NCBI GenBank assembly: GCA_030692515.1
Contig: JAUXZS010000024.1
Span: forward strand, 1-64,000
DNA from: Bacteroidota bacterium
Lineage (GTDB): Bacteria > Bacteroidota > Bacteroidia > B-17B0 > Aurantibacillaceae
Reading direction: 5' to 3'
DNA: 64,000 bases
Shown: positions 34,803 through 40,047 of the stretch, piece after piece
How positions within the stretch are numbered: position 1 is the stretch's first letter
Layout: every line of letters starts with the position of its first letter
Notes under the pieces: generated by a model
Databases searched by the model: none
What the model saw: the letters and a program-made list of their open reading frames with translations, nothing else
What the model was told of the DNA's origin: nothing
Translations under genes and position numbers: made by a program

Positions 34803-37070
34803 ATGGCATTTGACATTGAAATGATTAAGGAAGTATACAAAAACCTTCCTGCAAAAGTAGAAGCAGCCCGCAAACTAGTTGGTCGTCCGCTTACACTTAC
34901 CGAAAAAATATTATACGCTCACTTACATGCAGAGCAAGCGCCCGCAAGTTTTGAAAAAGGAAAATCCTATGTTGATTTTGCTCCAGATAGAGTTGCCATG
35001 CAAGATGCAACAGCTCAAATGGCTTTGTTACAATTTATGCAATCTGGTCGCCCTAAAGTGGCTGTGCCTTCTACTGTTCACTGCGATCATTTAATTACTG
35101 CAAAAAATGGTGCTAACGAAGATTTAGCTTTTGCAAATACAGAAAGTAAAGAAGTGTTTGATTTCTTAGGTTCTGTTTCAAATAAATATGGTATTGGCTT
35201 TTGGAAACCAGGCGCAGGTATTATTCATCAAGTAGTATTAGAAAATTATGCTTTCCCTGGTGGAATGATGATTGGTACCGATTCTCACACTGTTAACGCA
35301 GGTGGTTTAGGTATGATTGCAATTGGTGTTGGTGGTGCCGATGCTTGTGATGTTATGGCAGGTTTAGCTTGGGAATTAAAAATGCCAAAATTAATTGGTG
35401 TTAAGTTAACCGGTAAATTAAGCGGTTGGACAGCTCCTAAAGATGTTATTTTAAAAGTTGCTGGTATCCTTACTGTTAAAGGTGGAACGGATGCCGTTGT
35501 CGAATATTTTGGCGAAGGTGCAATATCAATGAGTTGTACCGGTAAAGGAACTATTTGTAATATGGGTGCAGAAATTGGTGCAACCACTTCTACATTTGGT
35601 TATGATGATAGCATGAGTCGTTATTTAAAAGCTACTGGCCGTGCTGATGTTGCTGCTTTAGCTGATACAATAAAAGAACATTTAACTGCTGATAAAGAAG
35701 TTTATGCTAATCCTGAAAAATATTTTGATCAAGTAATTGAAATTAATTTATCAGAATTAGAGCCACATGTTAACGGACCATTTACTCCAGATTTAGCAAC
35801 TCCAATCTCTAAATTAAAAGAGGCTGCTTTAGCAAATGGATGGCCAACAAAAATTTCTGTTGGTTTATTAGGCTCTTGTACTAACTCTTCTTACGAAGAT
35901 ATTTCTCGTGCAGTGAGTTTAGCAAAACAAGTTTCCTCAAAAAATTTAAAAGCAAAAGCAGAATATTTAATTAATCCAGGTTCAGAACAAATTCGTTTTA
36001 CAATTAAACGCGATGGATTTTTAGATGTGTTTGATCAAATTGGCGCAAAAGTATTTACTAACGCTTGCGGTCCTTGTATTGGTATGTGGGATAGAATGGG
36101 TGCTGAGAAACAAGAAAAAAATACTATCATTCATTCATTTAATAGAAACTTTGCAAAACGTGCCGATGGTAATCCAAACACCTATGCATTTGTTGCATCT
36201 CCAGAAATTGTAACAGCTATGGCTATTGCAGGAGATTTAACGTTTAATCCATTAACGGATTATTTAACGAATGAAAAAGGTGAGAAAGTAAAATTTGATG
36301 CGCCTACAGGAGATGAATTACCATCTAAAGGTTTTGCGGTTGAAGATGCTGGATATCAAGCTCCAGCTGCAGATGGAAGCAAAGTAATAGTAAATGTATC
36401 GCCTACTAGTAGTCGTTTACAATTACTTGACCCTTTTGCTGCTTGGGAAGGTGTTGATTTAAAAGGATTAAAATTATTAATTAAAGCAAAAGGTAAATGT
36501 ACAACTGACCATATTAGTATGGCTGGTCCTTGGTTAAAATTCCGTGGGCATTTAGATAATATTTCTAACAACATGTTAATTGGTGCTGTAAATTTCTTTA
36601 ACGAAAAAACAGACACCGTTAAAAATCAATTAACAGGTGCATATGATTCTGTACCAAAAGTACAACGCGATTATAAAGCAAATGGAATTGGTTCTATTGT
36701 TGTGGGTGACGAAAACTATGGCGAAGGTTCATCACGTGAGCATGCTGCTATGGAGCCTCGTCATTTAGGTGTACGTGCTGTTTTAGTAAAATCGTTTGCG
36801 CGTATTCACGAAACCAACTTAAAGAAACAAGGTATGTTAGGTTTAACCTTTGCTAATAAAGCCGATTACGATAAAATTCAAGAAAATGACTCTATCGATA
36901 TTACAGGCTTAACTTCATTTGCACCAGGCAAACCACTAACCGTTGTATTAAACCATGCAGATGGAAGTTCTGAAGAAATTAAAGCTAACCATACTTATAA
37001 CGCTCAACAAATTGAGTGGTTTAAAGCTGGTGGCGCCTTAAACATTATCAGAGCAAACGTAAAAGCATAA
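34803..37070 (+). CDS. acn: Aconitate hydratase
   Basis: A 755-residue aconitase of the mitochondrial-like/AcnA superfamily with three N-terminal domains and a swivelling domain 4. Iron-sulfur ligands are C359 ([13 protein letters not shown]), C422 and C425 (ACGPCIGMW). Further motifs are [24 protein letters not shown] and, in domain 4, [38 protein letters not shown]. It isomerises citrate to isocitrate in the TCA cycle. The C-terminal end reads [17 protein letters not shown]. Its last 68 bases are repeated, diverged, about 1 kb downstream beyond a Bro-N gene. A terminator follows the stop. Confidence 0.97.
37003..37070 (+). repeat. Direct repeat, first copy: 3' end of acn
   Basis: The last 68 bases of acn, encoding the end of the protein, recur at 38055-38121 at about 85 percent identity. 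Here the sequence is intact in frame. Confidence 0.8.
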
Positions 37071-37120
37071 CTAAAACGCTAAAAGTCATTAAGCACTCAC
37101 ACTCCTACCAATACATTATC

Positions 37121-37154
37121 AAAAATCCCTCTGGCAAAAAACAGGGGGATTTTT
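37121..37154 (+). terminator. Intrinsic terminator downstream of acn
   Basis: A 13-base stem (AAAAATCCCTCTG / CAGGGGGATTTTT, one G-T pair), 8-base loop and T-run. Distinct in sequence from the terminator following the second acn end. Confidence 0.85.
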
Positions 37155-37166
37155 ATTTTGCTACAA

Positions 37167-37190
37167 TTTATAGCTTCATAAAGCTATAAA
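37167..37190. promoter_or_regulatory. Perfect inverted repeat upstream of the Bro-N gene
   Basis: A 10-base perfect inverted repeat (TTTATAGCTT / AAGCTATAAA, 4-base centre) ends 30 bases before the Bro-N start codon. It has no T-run, so it is a candidate operator rather than a terminator. Autoregulation by the Bro-N protein is a guess. Confidence 0.45.
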
Positions 37191-37220
37191 ATAGGCTAAT
37201 TTTATAGTATATTTTGAATT

Positions 37221-38045
37221 ATGGGTAATATAAAGCTATTTGAAAGTAAGAAGGTTAGAAGTCATTGGGATGAAGAAAAGGAAATTTGGTATTTTTCTGT
37301 TATTGATGTCATAGAAATTCTCACAGATAGTTCAAGGCCAAGAAAATATTGGAGTGCTTTAAAAACAAAACTAATTGAGGAGGGAAGTGAACTGTCCCAT
37401 AAATTGGGACAGTTGAAAATGGAAGCAGAAGATGGTAAAATGCGCGAAACTGATGTGGCAGATACTCAAACACTCCTTCGTATAATTCAATCAATCCCAT
37501 CACCAAATGCAGAGCCATTTAAGCAATGGTTAGCAAAAGTTGGTTACGAGAGAATGCAAGAAATCAACGACCCAAGTCAAAGTATAGATAGAGCAAGAGA
37601 AAACTGGCAAAAATTGGGCAGAAGTGAAAAATGGATTCAGCAGCGTATGACAGGGCAAGAGACAAGAAATAAGTTAACCGACTATTGGAAAGAAAGTGGG
37701 GTTGAAAAAGATGATGAATTTGCACTGCTTACAAATATTATTCATGAAGAGTGGACAGGATTGAGCGTAAAAAAACATAAAAACTTAAAGGGTTTAAAAT
37801 CGCAAAATTTAAGAGATCATATGAGCGAGGCTGAATTAATTTTTACAGCTTTAGCCGAATTAAGTACGCGCCAAATAGCAGAAACTGATGAAGCTAAGGG
37901 TTTACATCAAAATGCAAAAGCTAGTAAAAAAGGTGGTACAATAGCAAAAGATGCGAGGCTAAATCTAGAAGAACAAACTGGGAAAAAAGTAGTTACCGGA
38001 GAAAATTTTTTAGCTCCAATTAAACGTATTAAAAAATTAAAATAA
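37221..38045 (+). CDS. Bro-N (phage antirepressor/DinD-like) protein
   Basis: A 274-residue protein with an N-terminal Bro-N domain (about 5-100: IKLFESKKVRSHWDEEKEIWYFSVIDVIEILTD, YWSALKTKL, GQLKMEAEDGKMRETDVADTQTLLRIIQSIPSPNAEPFKQWLAKVGYERM). The conserved helical C-terminal region follows (SEKWIQQRMTGQETRNKLTDYW, NLRDHMSEAELIFTALAELSTRQIAE, then a basic tail). Proteins of this architecture are annotated as BRO-family, antirepressor or DNA-damage-inducible D. They bind DNA and are spread by phages and small mobile units. No integrase or other partner is present. The gene is bracketed by two copies of the acn 3' end, suggesting acquisition as a tiny unit. Confidence 0.85.
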   Translation: MGNIKLFESKKVRSHWDEEKEIWYFSVIDVIEILTDSSRPRKYWSALKTKLIEEGSELSHKLGQLKMEAEDGKMRETDVADTQTLLRIIQSIPSPNAEPFKQWLAKVGYERMQEINDPSQSIDRARENWQKLGRSEKWIQQRMTGQETRNKLTDYWKESGVEKDDEFALLTNIIHEEWTGLSVKKHKNLKGLKSQNLRDHMSEAELIFTALAELSTRQIAETDEAKGLHQNAKASKKGGTIAKDARLNLEEQTGKKVVTGENFLAPIKRIKKLK

Positions 38046-38054
38046 ACATCAATA

Positions 38055-38121
38055 CTCAACAAATTGTTGATTTAAAGCAGGTGGTGCTTTAAACATTATT
38101 AGAGCAAACGTAAAAGCTTAA
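38055..38121 (+). pseudogene. Displaced second copy of the acn 3' end
   Basis: Starting 9 bases after the Bro-N stop codon, 67 bases match 37003-37070 with one deletion and about nine substitutions. The frame is broken near its start (a one-base deletion beside a TGA), but from TTTAAAGC onward it still codes for the same residues ([13 protein letters not shown] then TAA). The differences there are synonymous third-position changes, so this is a coding-diverged allele, not random drift. A terminator follows directly. It is best read as the original gene end pushed away by insertion, or as the remnant of a second aconitase gene. Confidence 0.75.
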
Positions 38122-38141: not shown

Positions 38142-38175
38142 AAAGCCTCTCAATAAAATGAGGGGCTTTTTTGTT
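38142..38175 (+). terminator. Intrinsic terminator after the displaced acn end
   Basis: An 11-base stem (AAAGCCTCTCA / TGAGGGGCTTT, one G-T pair), 7-base loop and a T-run. It sits 20 bases behind the second acn stop codon, as a terminator for acn would. Confidence 0.8.
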
Positions 38176-38198: not shown

Positions 38199-39899
38199 AT
38201 GAAAAGAATACTATTTTTGATTATATCCTTAATTTTTATTGAATATATAAAAGCACAGACACCAGCATTTCATTGGGCAAAAGGCGTTGGCGGATCCGCT
38301 TATGATGGCGGAAATTCAATTGTATCTGATGCAAACGGAAATATATATACAGTAGGGAATTTTGCAGGGACTATAGATTTTGATCCAAGTCCTTCAATAT
38401 TTAATCTAACGGCTCCTGGAAATAATCAAGATGTTTTTATTTTGAAATTAGATGCTTCAGGAAACTTTGTTTGGGCAAAAAATATAGGCGGGACATATAA
38501 CGACCAAGGACTTTCTTGTGCTATAGATGCATCCGGTAACATTTATATCACTGGTACATTTGGGGGAACAGTGGATTTTGATCCTGGCATTGGAATATAT
38601 AATTTAACAACTACAGGTACAGATATTTTTATTTTAAAATTAGACAATTCAGGAAATTTTAGTTGGGCAAAAAATATTGGAGGAATTGGAGTTATTCAGT
38701 CCAGATCAATTGCAGTAGATGTTTCTGAAAATGTTTATGTAACAGGTTACTTTGATCAGACAAAAGACTTCGATCCTAATGCCGGTGTTTTCAACTTAAT
38801 ATCTGCGGGTGGAACAGACGTTTTTATATTAAAATTAAATCAAATCGGTAATTTGGTATGGGCTAAAAAGATTGGAGGAACATCATCTGAATTAAGTCAT
38901 TCAATTGCTATAGACGTTTCTGGAAATGTTTATTCAACAGGTTATTTTAGAGGAACATGTGATTTTGATCCAGGAATTGGTATAGCAAATTTAAATTCAT
39001 CTTCTGCATCTGACCTAGATATTTTTATTTCAAAACTAGATGCCTTAGGTAATTATGTATGGGCGAAACAAATAGGATCTACATCTGATGATAGAGGCTA
39101 TTCTATTGCGATAGATGCGTTTAATAATGTTTATACAGTAGGGACATTTTCAGGAACTGTCGATTTTGACCCAGGCGTTGGAACAAATAATTTAACATCA
39201 ATAAACAATAATAACTGGTTTATTTCAAAATTAAATAGCTCGGGTGACTTTTTGTGGGCAAAAAATACAGAAGGAACATTATCAGGATATGGATTCCCAC
39301 TTGCAATAGATACAAATAATAATATATATACAATTGGGCAATTTAATGGGGTTGTTGATTTTGACCCTGGGTCAGGAGTCACAAATTTAAATTCTGCAAA
39401 TGGAATTATATTTATCACAAAATACAATAACGCTGGGGATTTTTTATGGGCAACCAATTTTGCTAATTACTTCTCATGTACTGGGATTTCAATTACAACG
39501 AATTCTTTAGGAAACATATATACTACAGGTGATTTTTCTGGAACTATTGACTGCGACCCAGGACCAGGAACATTCAGTTTAACCTCAAATGGATTATCCG
39601 ATATTTTCATTCATAAAATGAGTCAGCCAAGTGTTGGAATAAAAGAAAATGATTTAAAAAAAATTATTAGTATCTACCCAAACCCATCAACTAAAATTAT
39701 AAATGTTGAATTGGAAATTTTAAATGAAAAGGACACAAAAATTCAAATTTTAAATTTACTTGGTCAAGTTTTAATTGAAGAAACTCCAACCTCGCAAAAT
39801 TTTTCATTTAACATTCAAAATTTCCCAAATGGTTTATACTTTTTAAAAATGATAAGTGATGGTAATATTATTGAAACAAGAAAAATTGTGAAGGAATAA
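38199..39899 (+). CDS. Secreted SBBP-like propeller protein with T9SS sorting domain
   Basis: A 566-residue protein. The signal peptide is 1-19 (ending IKAQ). Seven repeats of about 60 residues follow (20-460), each with the pattern SGNFVWAKNIGG...A IDASGNIYITGTF.GT.DFDPG.G..NL. Every repeat ends in a DFDP or DCDP acidic turn, which may bind Ca2+. The end is a T9SS sorting domain (IYPNPSTK... NGLYFLKM ... ETRKIVKE). No catalytic site is evident. It is probably a surface or secreted binding protein. A micro-lipoprotein gene follows after 13 bases, possibly in the same transcript. Confidence 0.88.
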   Translation: MKRILFLIISLIFIEYIKAQTPAFHWAKGVGGSAYDGGNSIVSDANGNIYTVGNFAGTIDFDPSPSIFNLTAPGNNQDVFILKLDASGNFVWAKNIGGTYNDQGLSCAIDASGNIYITGTFGGTVDFDPGIGIYNLTTTGTDIFILKLDNSGNFSWAKNIGGIGVIQSRSIAVDVSENVYVTGYFDQTKDFDPNAGVFNLISAGGTDVFILKLNQIGNLVWAKKIGGTSSELSHSIAIDVSGNVYSTGYFRGTCDFDPGIGIANLNSSSASDLDIFISKLDALGNYVWAKQIGSTSDDRGYSIAIDAFNNVYTVGTFSGTVDFDPGVGTNNLTSINNNNWFISKLNSSGDFLWAKNTEGTLSGYGFPLAIDTNNNIYTIGQFNGVVDFDPGSGVTNLNSANGIIFITKYNNAGDFLWATNFANYFSCTGISITTNSLGNIYTTGDFSGTIDCDPGPGTFSLTSNGLSDIFIHKMSQPSVGIKENDLKKIISIYPNPSTKIINVELEILNEKDTKIQILNLLGQVLIEETPTSQNFSFNIQNFPNGLYFLKMISDGNIIETRKIVKE

Positions 39900-39912: not shown

Positions 39913-40047
39913 ATGAAAAACATCGGTAAATACTTTTTTATTATTTTAATTCTATTCAGTCTAATAGCCGAATCTTGTAAAACAAGAAAAGACTGTGGCG
40001 GAAGAAGAAAGAAAAAAATAAAAACCCAAATGGGTGGGTATATGTAA
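39913..40047 (+). CDS. Micro-lipoprotein, 44 residues, with C-terminal MGGYM motif
   Basis: The ATG at 39913 opens a 44-codon frame: MKNIGKYFFIILILFSLIAESC, a lipoprotein signal peptide with Cys22 as the lipid-anchored residue, then TRKDCGGRRKKKIKTQMGGYM. The mature part is 22 residues, strongly basic, and ends MGGYM. Short Bacteroidota lipoproteins with a Cys, a run of Lys/Arg and a terminal MGG(W/Y/F)M motif are familiar to me, though I cannot name a function. The frame starts 13 bases after the propeller gene. The lipobox-like sequence (ESC) argues strongly that it is a gene. Confidence 0.6.
   Translation: MKNIGKYFFIILILFSLIAESCKTRKDCGGRRKKKIKTQMGGYM

What the first reader, a model, noticed from the sequence alone, without database searches (positions are those of the whole stretch)
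37003..38121. Bro-N gene bracketed by a duplicated aconitase 3' end
The last 68 bases of acn occur again at 38055-38121, one kilobase downstream, with a single Bro-N gene and little else between them. The second copy has about 85 percent identity. Past a one-base deletion, its differences in codons for [13 protein letters not shown] are at third positions and synonymous, so the copy diverged while it was still coding. Each copy is followed by its own, different terminator. This is what gene-end-replacing integration leaves: an incoming unit carries a foreign acn end that restores the gene, and the native end is displaced. The unit has no recombinase, so it may have moved by homologous recombination or with a helper. 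If real, acn would be an insertion hotspot for micro-elements carrying Bro-N genes.
Basis: partly seen in the sequence, partly recalled or inferred. Interest (0 to 1): 0.82.

Follow-up and report, generated by a model that had tools for sequence, protein, structure and literature searches.

The report
Defence-like gene bracketed by gene ends
A lone gene of a suspected anti-phage family sits between two copies of the end of a housekeeping gene, probably because it arrived with a borrowed gene end that took the place of the original one, and related lone genes sit in the same way at other genes.

Summary
In detail: the last 67-68 bp of acn recur just after a single Bro-N gene, with one deletion and all 7 mismatches at third codon positions. 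Of 33 other same-genus acn loci read, only G033 shows acn, Bro-N, acn-end. Over the last 45 nt the distal copy fits all 7 closest relatives better, so the translated end is probably the foreign one; terminators point the same way only weakly. Bro-N is less diverged than acn between window and G033, and window sits among empty-site species.
The pattern is wider. Acn ends also bracket a restriction system plus SIR2 gene (G043) and other cargo (G268, G382). Bro-N genes have flanking repeats in 19 of 67 loci, ordinary ORFs in 6 of 163, RhuM in 7 of 25, Fic in 2 of 27. Repeats include 3' ends of VanZ, HATPase, isochorismatase, AraC and SpoU genes and a sucD-like gene.
The protein matches PADLOC PDC-S13 and folds like DdrC; no recombinase. 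Best reading: recombinase-free insertion with gene-end duplication, founded by one-sided recombination and spread by host recombination. Known kind, new variant.

The parts
34803..37070 (+). acn, aconitate hydratase, 755 aa, intact
   Evidence: orthologues in relatives
37003..37070 (+). proximal, translated copy of the acn end; probably the incoming (foreign) allele
37120..37160 (+). terminator-like stem following the proximal copy (aaatccctctgg..cagggggattttt)
   Evidence: read; scores
37221..38045 (+). Bro-N gene, 274 aa; PF02498 at N terminus, PADLOC PDC-S13, phrog_15286; predicted DdrC-like fold
38046..38054 (+). right joint between the Bro-N stop codon and the displaced acn end; same place in G033
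38055..38121 (+). distal, displaced copy of the acn end (native type over its last 45 nt), frame broken by one deletion
38142..38174 (+). terminator after the distal copy (aaagcctctc..gaggggctttttt); like those after acn in G007 and G026, also like two other terminators of this genome
38199..39899 (+). second inserted gene: 566 aa, SBBP repeats and Por_Secre_tail sorting domain, not seen at this place in the close relatives
39913..40047 (+). small ORF that follows the acn terminator closely in most close relatives (native neighbour)
   Evidence: read; block score 82-108 in six of seven close relatives

Best explanation
A single Bro-N gene (PADLOC family PDC-S13) was inserted at the 3' end of acn together with a replacement acn end and terminator, probably from another species of the genus; the native acn end was pushed downstream. 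Shown: the duplication, the empty sites, closer fit of the displaced end to the nearest relatives over 45 nt, silent-site-only differences between the copies, and enrichment of such repeats around Bro-N and RhuM genes. Inferred: horizontal spread within the genus; a founding joint at or near the cargo's stop codon made by one-sided homologous (homology-facilitated illegitimate) recombination; afterwards spread by ordinary host recombination, because the unit always carries gene-end homology (acn body on the left and acn end on the right, or a circle with one gene end that re-enters by a single crossover). The cargo is kept because it is useful or selfish, perhaps in phage defence or the DNA-damage response.
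For: Empty sites (46 of 49 genomes). Distal copy fits better than the proximal one over the last 45 nt in 7 of the 7 closest relatives, e.g. G019 43 against 38, G021 42 against 37, G012 42 against 41. Window mismatches 0/0/7 by codon position; five acn loci pooled 16/13/51, p=0.009 even if half of all changes are expected at third positions. Window sits with 8 empty-site species (99/96) while G033 and G014 lie in another clade, three label changes on the acn tree; the Bro-N copies of the three cluster with moderate support (82/97), dS 0.60 for Bro-N against 0.86 for acn. No acn in 80 other Bro-N loci, and in the 60 hit rows printed DNA similarity lies within 37199-38048, in essence the ORF. 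Repeats: 19 of 67 Bro-N against 6 of 163 ORFs, p=3e-7.
Against: Over all 68 columns the fit is mixed: proximal better with G012 (64 against 62), equal with G006, G026 and G007, distal better with G021, G019 and G035. G012, the nearest relative, shares two silent bases with the proximal copy, and its terminator block fits neither copy. The distal terminator block beats the proximal one in 6 of 7 relatives, but two unrelated terminators of the same genome score 28.5 and 31, as much as G021, G006 and G019 do; only G007 (47) and G026 (35.5) stand out. The donor is unknown. Over all 11 gene-end loci the third-position excess is not significant under the conservative expectation (91 of 166, p=0.12); L082, L059, L062 and G268 look like duplication then decay. 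One-sided recombination does not by itself predict joints close to the cargo stop codon. The dS comparison is one gene pair without an error bar.
Confidence: 0.54

Rival explanations
1. Self-driven insertion: the Bro-N protein itself (DdrC-like, perhaps DNA end-binding, annealing and circularising) promotes capture of its own gene at gene ends, so the unit is a selfish micro-element with a right end near its stop codon.
For: Repeat enrichment for Bro-N and RhuM but not clearly for Fic. In the unselected set of 22 Bro-N loci with a repeat score above 17, 8 have the right repeat beginning within -16 to +15 nt of the end of the stop codon; in 19 loci that I picked for a small right gap, RhuM loci included, 14. 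DdrC binds, anneals and circularises DNA in vitro (PMC5436757, abstract and outline seen) and is the only confident fold match.
Against: No recombinase or nuclease domain recognised. Acn ends also bracket cargo in which I saw no Bro-N gene (G043, G268, G382). RhuM is a different Pfam family and shows the same. Four of the six repeat-flanked control ORFs have the right repeat 1-5 bp after their stop codon, so that feature is not special to Bro-N.
Confidence: 0.15
2. Insertion with long target duplication by an unknown replicative or staggered-break process: both ends start identical and native, and differ by later drift.
For: This is the pattern reported for restriction-modification genes in H. 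pylori (described in PMC1643837, passages). L082, L059, L062 and G268 show no significant third-position excess, and G470 has 89 of 92 identical bases. Over the full 68 columns the window's copies fit the relatives about equally.
Against: Window: all 7 mismatches at third positions, while the supposedly drifting distal copy is the one nearer to the relatives over 45 nt. In the 21 Bro-N repeats inspected identity is 73-97%, never 100%.
Confidence: 0.21
3. Tandem duplication of acn followed by decay of the second copy and gain of a Bro-N gene between them.
For: None beyond the duplication itself.
Against: In 60 genomes searched, own included, 56 have acn and none a second close full copy; G002 and G022 are split over contigs and other extra matches are distant family members near 30% identity. 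G561, of another family, does have two full-length acn genes on separate contigs, unread. The remnant is 67-78 bp in window and G033 and starts near the Bro-N stop.
Confidence: 0.02
4. Vertical inheritance of an old acn-BroN-acn-end arrangement with many losses by recombination between the repeats.
For: Loss between direct repeats is easy, and three species of the genus have Bro-N near acn.
Against: Window is nested among 8 empty-site species; Bro-N is less diverged than acn between window and G033; the distal end is well preserved for an old fragment.
Confidence: 0.08

Closest known systems
Insertion with long target duplication of restriction-modification genes (Nobusato et al. 2000, Furuta et al. 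2010)
   Same: Polymorphic insertion with long direct repeats of host sequence; in G043 the cargo is a restriction-modification system
   Different: Cargo is a lone Bro-N or RhuM gene; the repeat is often a coding gene end, one copy of which may be foreign. Originals not read: Nobusato is described in PMC1643837 (passages) and cited in PMC3031569 and PMC3154945 (passages); Furuta 2010 is not held
Gene-end displacement by homology-facilitated illegitimate recombination (T6SS effector arrays, Rhs; Kirchberger et al. 2017)
   Same: Incoming DNA anchored in a conserved stretch, new 3' part in place, old part displaced downstream (PMC5361080, passages read)
   Different: Target there is a variable effector gene under selection; here a housekeeping gene whose end is replaced by a nearly synonymous one
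tRNA-gene and gene-end integrating islands with site-specific recombinases (recalled)
   Same: The element restores the 3' end of the target gene and leaves a displaced end at the far side
   Different: No integrase in the 1-kb unit
Fungal mitochondrial atp6 end replacement by an endonuclease-bearing element (Allomyces; recalled, not read)
   Same: Foreign gene end linked to a lone ORF displaces the native end
   Different: Lone ORF there is a homing endonuclease; here no nuclease domain is recognised
DdrC of Deinococcus radiodurans / DinD of E. coli
   Same: Similar fold over both domains: Foldseek E 7e-7, VIA Z 15.2 over 215 residues with DdrC
   Different: 14% identity to DdrC; DinD equivalog model scores 26 against a cut-off of 242

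Membership tests
Insertion with long target duplication (RM-gene type) | Insertion present or absent between related genomes | tested here: met
   46 of 49 acn genomes without the duplication
Insertion with long target duplication (RM-gene type) | Long direct repeats of host sequence at both ends | tested here: met
   67-68 bp in the window; repeats of about 35 to 420 bp in 21 Bro-N loci
Insertion with long target duplication (RM-gene type) | Cargo is a restriction-modification system | tested here: not met
   Bro-N gene in the window; met only at G043
Site-specific integrative element | Encodes a tyrosine or serine recombinase | tested here: not met
   No other plausible ORF in 37071-38054 and no recombinase domain in the Bro-N protein
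Homology-facilitated illegitimate recombination product | One homologous junction carrying a donor allele | tested here: inconclusive
   Proximal end deviates from close relatives over 45 nt but not over all 68 columns; no donor identified
Homology-facilitated illegitimate recombination product | One junction with little or no homology | tested here: inconclusive
   Right joint in 38046-38054; 19 joints inspected, some within A-rich tails with short matches
Bro-N domain family (PF02498) / PADLOC PDC-S13 | Profile match | tested here: met
   PF02498 41.6 bits over a cut-off of 25.6; PDC-S13 E 5e-126
Anti-phage defence gene | Protects against phage | not testable with these tools
   PDC-S13 is a candidate family by name only; one search listed two papers with PDC-S05, none with PDC-S13, not read
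DinD equivalog (NF008573) | Score over the curated cut-off | tested here: not met
   26 bits against 242
DdrC-like fold | Same fold over both domains | tested here: met
   Foldseek probability 1.00; Z 15.2 over 215 residues, best unrelated entry 6.8; rmsd is large (12 A), and Z up to about 14 can occur for helical models
Homing endonuclease linked gene-end replacement | Endonuclease domain | tested here: inconclusive
   None recognised by Pfam or fold; absence is not proof

The most novel reading that the evidence does not exclude
Lone Bro-N (PDC-S13) and RhuM (PDC-S05) genes are a class of recombinase-free micro-elements that move between bacterial species as bare ORFs, carrying a nearly synonymous replacement for the 3' end of a housekeeping gene, with a right boundary at their own stop codon, and a DdrC-like DNA-annealing product that helps to capture the gene at the target.
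Probability: 0.14. Interest if true: 0.9.

Novelty: new variant of a known kind. Interest (0 to 1): 0.6.

Why it matters
It offers a way for single defence-like genes without recombinases to travel between species and settle safely downstream of housekeeping genes: the target gene stays whole because an end for it comes along. It extends a pattern known for restriction-modification genes to two lone-gene families, gives a simple signature (a duplicated gene end across a lone gene, often starting at its stop codon) for finding other cargo, and makes the question how such genes are mobilised testable.

Tried and rejected
Ordinary tandem duplication of acn: not borne out. Own-genome paralogues: G000 has one match to this Bro-N at E 1e-20 or better, and two acn-end matches, the two copies. 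Chance repeat: rejected. Flanking repeats tied to acn: rejected, none of 80 other Bro-N loci has acn in the DNA held. Further acn cases that failed: G441 is a frameshifted acn, G662 a partial second acn at a contig edge, G491 a contig-edge match left unread; G561 has two full acn genes, unread; the remaining second or third matches (E 0.17 to 1) look like background and were not read. G014: decayed Bro-N 2 kb past acn, no second acn end found. Solved structures by sequence: one match at E 0.71, taken as chance. Repeats across 38199-39899: none (score 10.5). Nineteen other Bro-N loci of relatives (flanks 2.5 kb) showed repeats above 17 only in L199 and L207, so the signal is weaker there. Of the 80 loci, 22 score above 17 and 21 above 20; several (L047, L058, L084, L099, L106, L109) look to me like dispersed or low-complexity repeats, so about 15 are convincing; none was dropped from the counts. 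Some of the 80 share a site by descent (Flavobacterium loci). One background pair scored 321.5 and was not traced. A first control gave 2 of 48 and was enlarged to 163. The class sample (6 of 28 for Bro-N) includes the window itself, G041 (also L199) and a locus with the same repeat as L050. Five RhuM and three Fic loci with short flanks were dropped before counting.
Full report
What is there. The window holds an intact acn gene (34803-37070), 150 bp with a terminator-like stem, a 274-aa Bro-N ORF (37221-38045), and from 38055 a second copy of the last 67 bp of acn, followed by another terminator. The two copies align over 68 columns with 60 identities and one gap; the score is far outside 1975 random pairs from the window. 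All 7 mismatches are at third codon positions.

Empty sites. I searched acn in 60 genomes, own included (56 have it), and read the 3' side of acn in 49 genomes, the window's included (50 loci, G033 twice). Three have an acn-end duplication: the window, G033 of the same genus (Bro-N 85% identical, same order) and G043 of another family. The other 46 show none, though for G026 and G024 less than 600 bp downstream was at hand, and for most relatives saw only 1.5 kb. Besides the window, 33 acn ends of the genus were read; G033 is the only other one with the arrangement. G014 has a decayed Bro-N 2 kb downstream without a second acn end.

Which end is native. Ranked by the 300 nt of acn before the repeat, the seven closest relatives are G012, G021, G019, G006, G026, G007 and G035. 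Over the last 45 nt all seven are closer to the distal copy, G012 by one base only; over all 68 columns the picture is mixed (G012 favours the proximal copy 64 to 62, three are tied, three favour the distal one). The distal copy is broken next to the deletion, which costs it matches in the full comparison. The last alanine codon reads as in the distal copy in 7 of 7, the one that opens the 45 nt in 6 of 7 (my reading). The block after the distal copy resembles the relatives' terminator blocks better than the proximal block does in 6 of 7, but two unrelated terminators of the same genome score 28.5 and 31, as high as three of these relatives; only G007 (47) and G026 (35.5) clearly exceed that. 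On balance the displaced copy carries the local alleles and the translated one the odd alleles, the reverse of duplication followed by decay, but 45 nt is little.

History. On a tree of acn without its last 78 nt the window belongs to a group of nine with eight empty-site species (99/96); G033 and G014 fall in another group, and presence of Bro-N needs three changes. On the Bro-N tree the three acn-linked copies cluster with moderate support (82/97). Bro-N differs less between window and G033 (dS 0.60) than acn does (0.86, one pair, no error bar). This fits transfer within the genus. The joint between Bro-N and the displaced acn end lies at the same place in window and G033, and DNA similarity runs on through it (84%), so the joint is probably shared by descent of the unit.

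More acn ends. A 31-residue acn C terminus was sought in 395 genomes of the phylum (187 match) and 395 of the class (321 match; the samples overlap). Genomes with more than one match were followed up. Besides the window and G043, tandem duplications turned up in G268 (2.5 kb apart) and G382 (4.2 kb apart), where the terminators look duplicated too. Cargo: in G043 a type II methyltransferase, a BsoBI-type restriction enzyme and a SIR2 protein; in G268 several ORFs of unknown kind (three gave no PADLOC match); in G382 two long ORFs that look secreted (my reading). By BLAST the displaced end starts 72-78 nt before the end of the acn stop in G382 and G268, close to the start in window and G033; a looser alignment gives 98 and 112 nt, and 126 nt in G043. 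A preferred site is thus possible, not shown.

Beyond acn. Among the 80 Bro-N loci closest to the window protein, 22 have a direct repeat across the gene with a score above 17, 21 above 20. With fuller flanks this is 19 of 67 against 6 of 163 ordinary ORFs (p=3e-7). In a class-wide sample of 149 genomes the rate is 6 of 28 for Bro-N, 7 of 25 for RhuM and 2 of 27 for Fic; against the 163 ORFs the first two are significant, Fic is not. Bro-N and RhuM proteins match PADLOC families PDC-S13 and PDC-S05 (PDC I recall as phage defence candidate). The repeat is a gene 3' end at VanZ (L082), HATPase (L053), isochorismatase (L112), AraC (L052, convergent) and SpoU (L059, convergent) genes, and lies at the 5' side of RmuC (L050) and glycosidase-like (L063) genes. 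In G470 the last 92 bp of a gene that I read as sucD, downstream of acn, recur at the stop codon of a RhuM gene, 89 of 92 bases identical, the three differences at third positions. In all 22 repeat loci together, 8 have the right copy beginning within -16 to +15 nt of the end of the Bro-N stop codon; in 19 loci that I chose for a small right gap, 14. Four of six repeat-flanked control ORFs show the same.

Do the copies come from different species? Codon positions of mismatches: five acn loci 16/13/51, all eleven gene-end loci 43/32/91. Since the intact copy itself collects silent changes, I also tested against one half at third positions: acn loci p=0.009, window alone p=0.008, all eleven p=0.12. 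So different origins of the two ends are supported at acn, above all in the window, but not at every locus.

The protein. AlphaFold model pLDDT 86. The only confident fold match is DdrC of Deinococcus (Foldseek E 7e-7; Z 15.2 over 215 residues). The abstract of PMC5436757 reports DNA binding, nuclease protection, strand annealing and circularisation by DdrC. No recombinase or nuclease domain was recognised. Whether the protein helps its own capture is open.

Mechanism. I favour a founding event by one-sided homology plus an illegitimate joint at the cargo end, as proposed for displaced ends in Vibrio T6SS arrays (PMC5361080, passages), followed by spread through host recombination between gene ends, as a linear piece or as a circle formed between the repeats. 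Either regenerates a whole target gene each time. The closeness of many joints to the stop codon, and the enrichment in Bro-N and RhuM, are not explained by that alone and leave room for an active part of these genes.

Known or new. Insertions with long target duplication were described for restriction-modification genes (PMC1643837, passages; PMC3031569, passages; original papers not read). In my searches (listings only, except the papers named) I saw no report of it for Bro-N or RhuM genes. I file it as a new variant of a known kind.

Noticed in passing
window 38199-39899: A second inserted gene (SBBP repeats, Por_Secre_tail) lies between the terminator after the distal acn end and the native next small ORF; close relatives lack it there. 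No flanking repeat.
   Followed up: partly
L114 3967-9134 (G043): BsoBI-type restriction-modification pair plus a SIR2-domain gene between two acn ends.
   Followed up: partly
L324 5062-7194, reverse complement (G470): sucD-like gene end duplicated around a 271-aa ORF and a RhuM gene, downstream of acn; 97% identical, so probably recent.
   Followed up: partly
L079 5001-7042: A broken Bro-N gene followed by a RhuM gene; the right repeat copy lies between them.
   Followed up: no
L189 5372-6165 (G014): Decayed Bro-N copy 2 kb past acn, behind another sorting-domain gene; related to the window copy.
   Followed up: partly
L082 9600-10217, L235 10099-10716, L045 8252-8902, L064 1869-2744: Control ORFs (no Pfam match except a weak BMC hit in the first) whose flanking repeats also begin 1-5 bp after the stop codon; the architecture may be wider than Bro-N and RhuM.
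   Followed up: no
G561 contigs C9 and C19 (not fetched): Two full-length aconitase genes on separate contigs of one genome.
   Followed up: no
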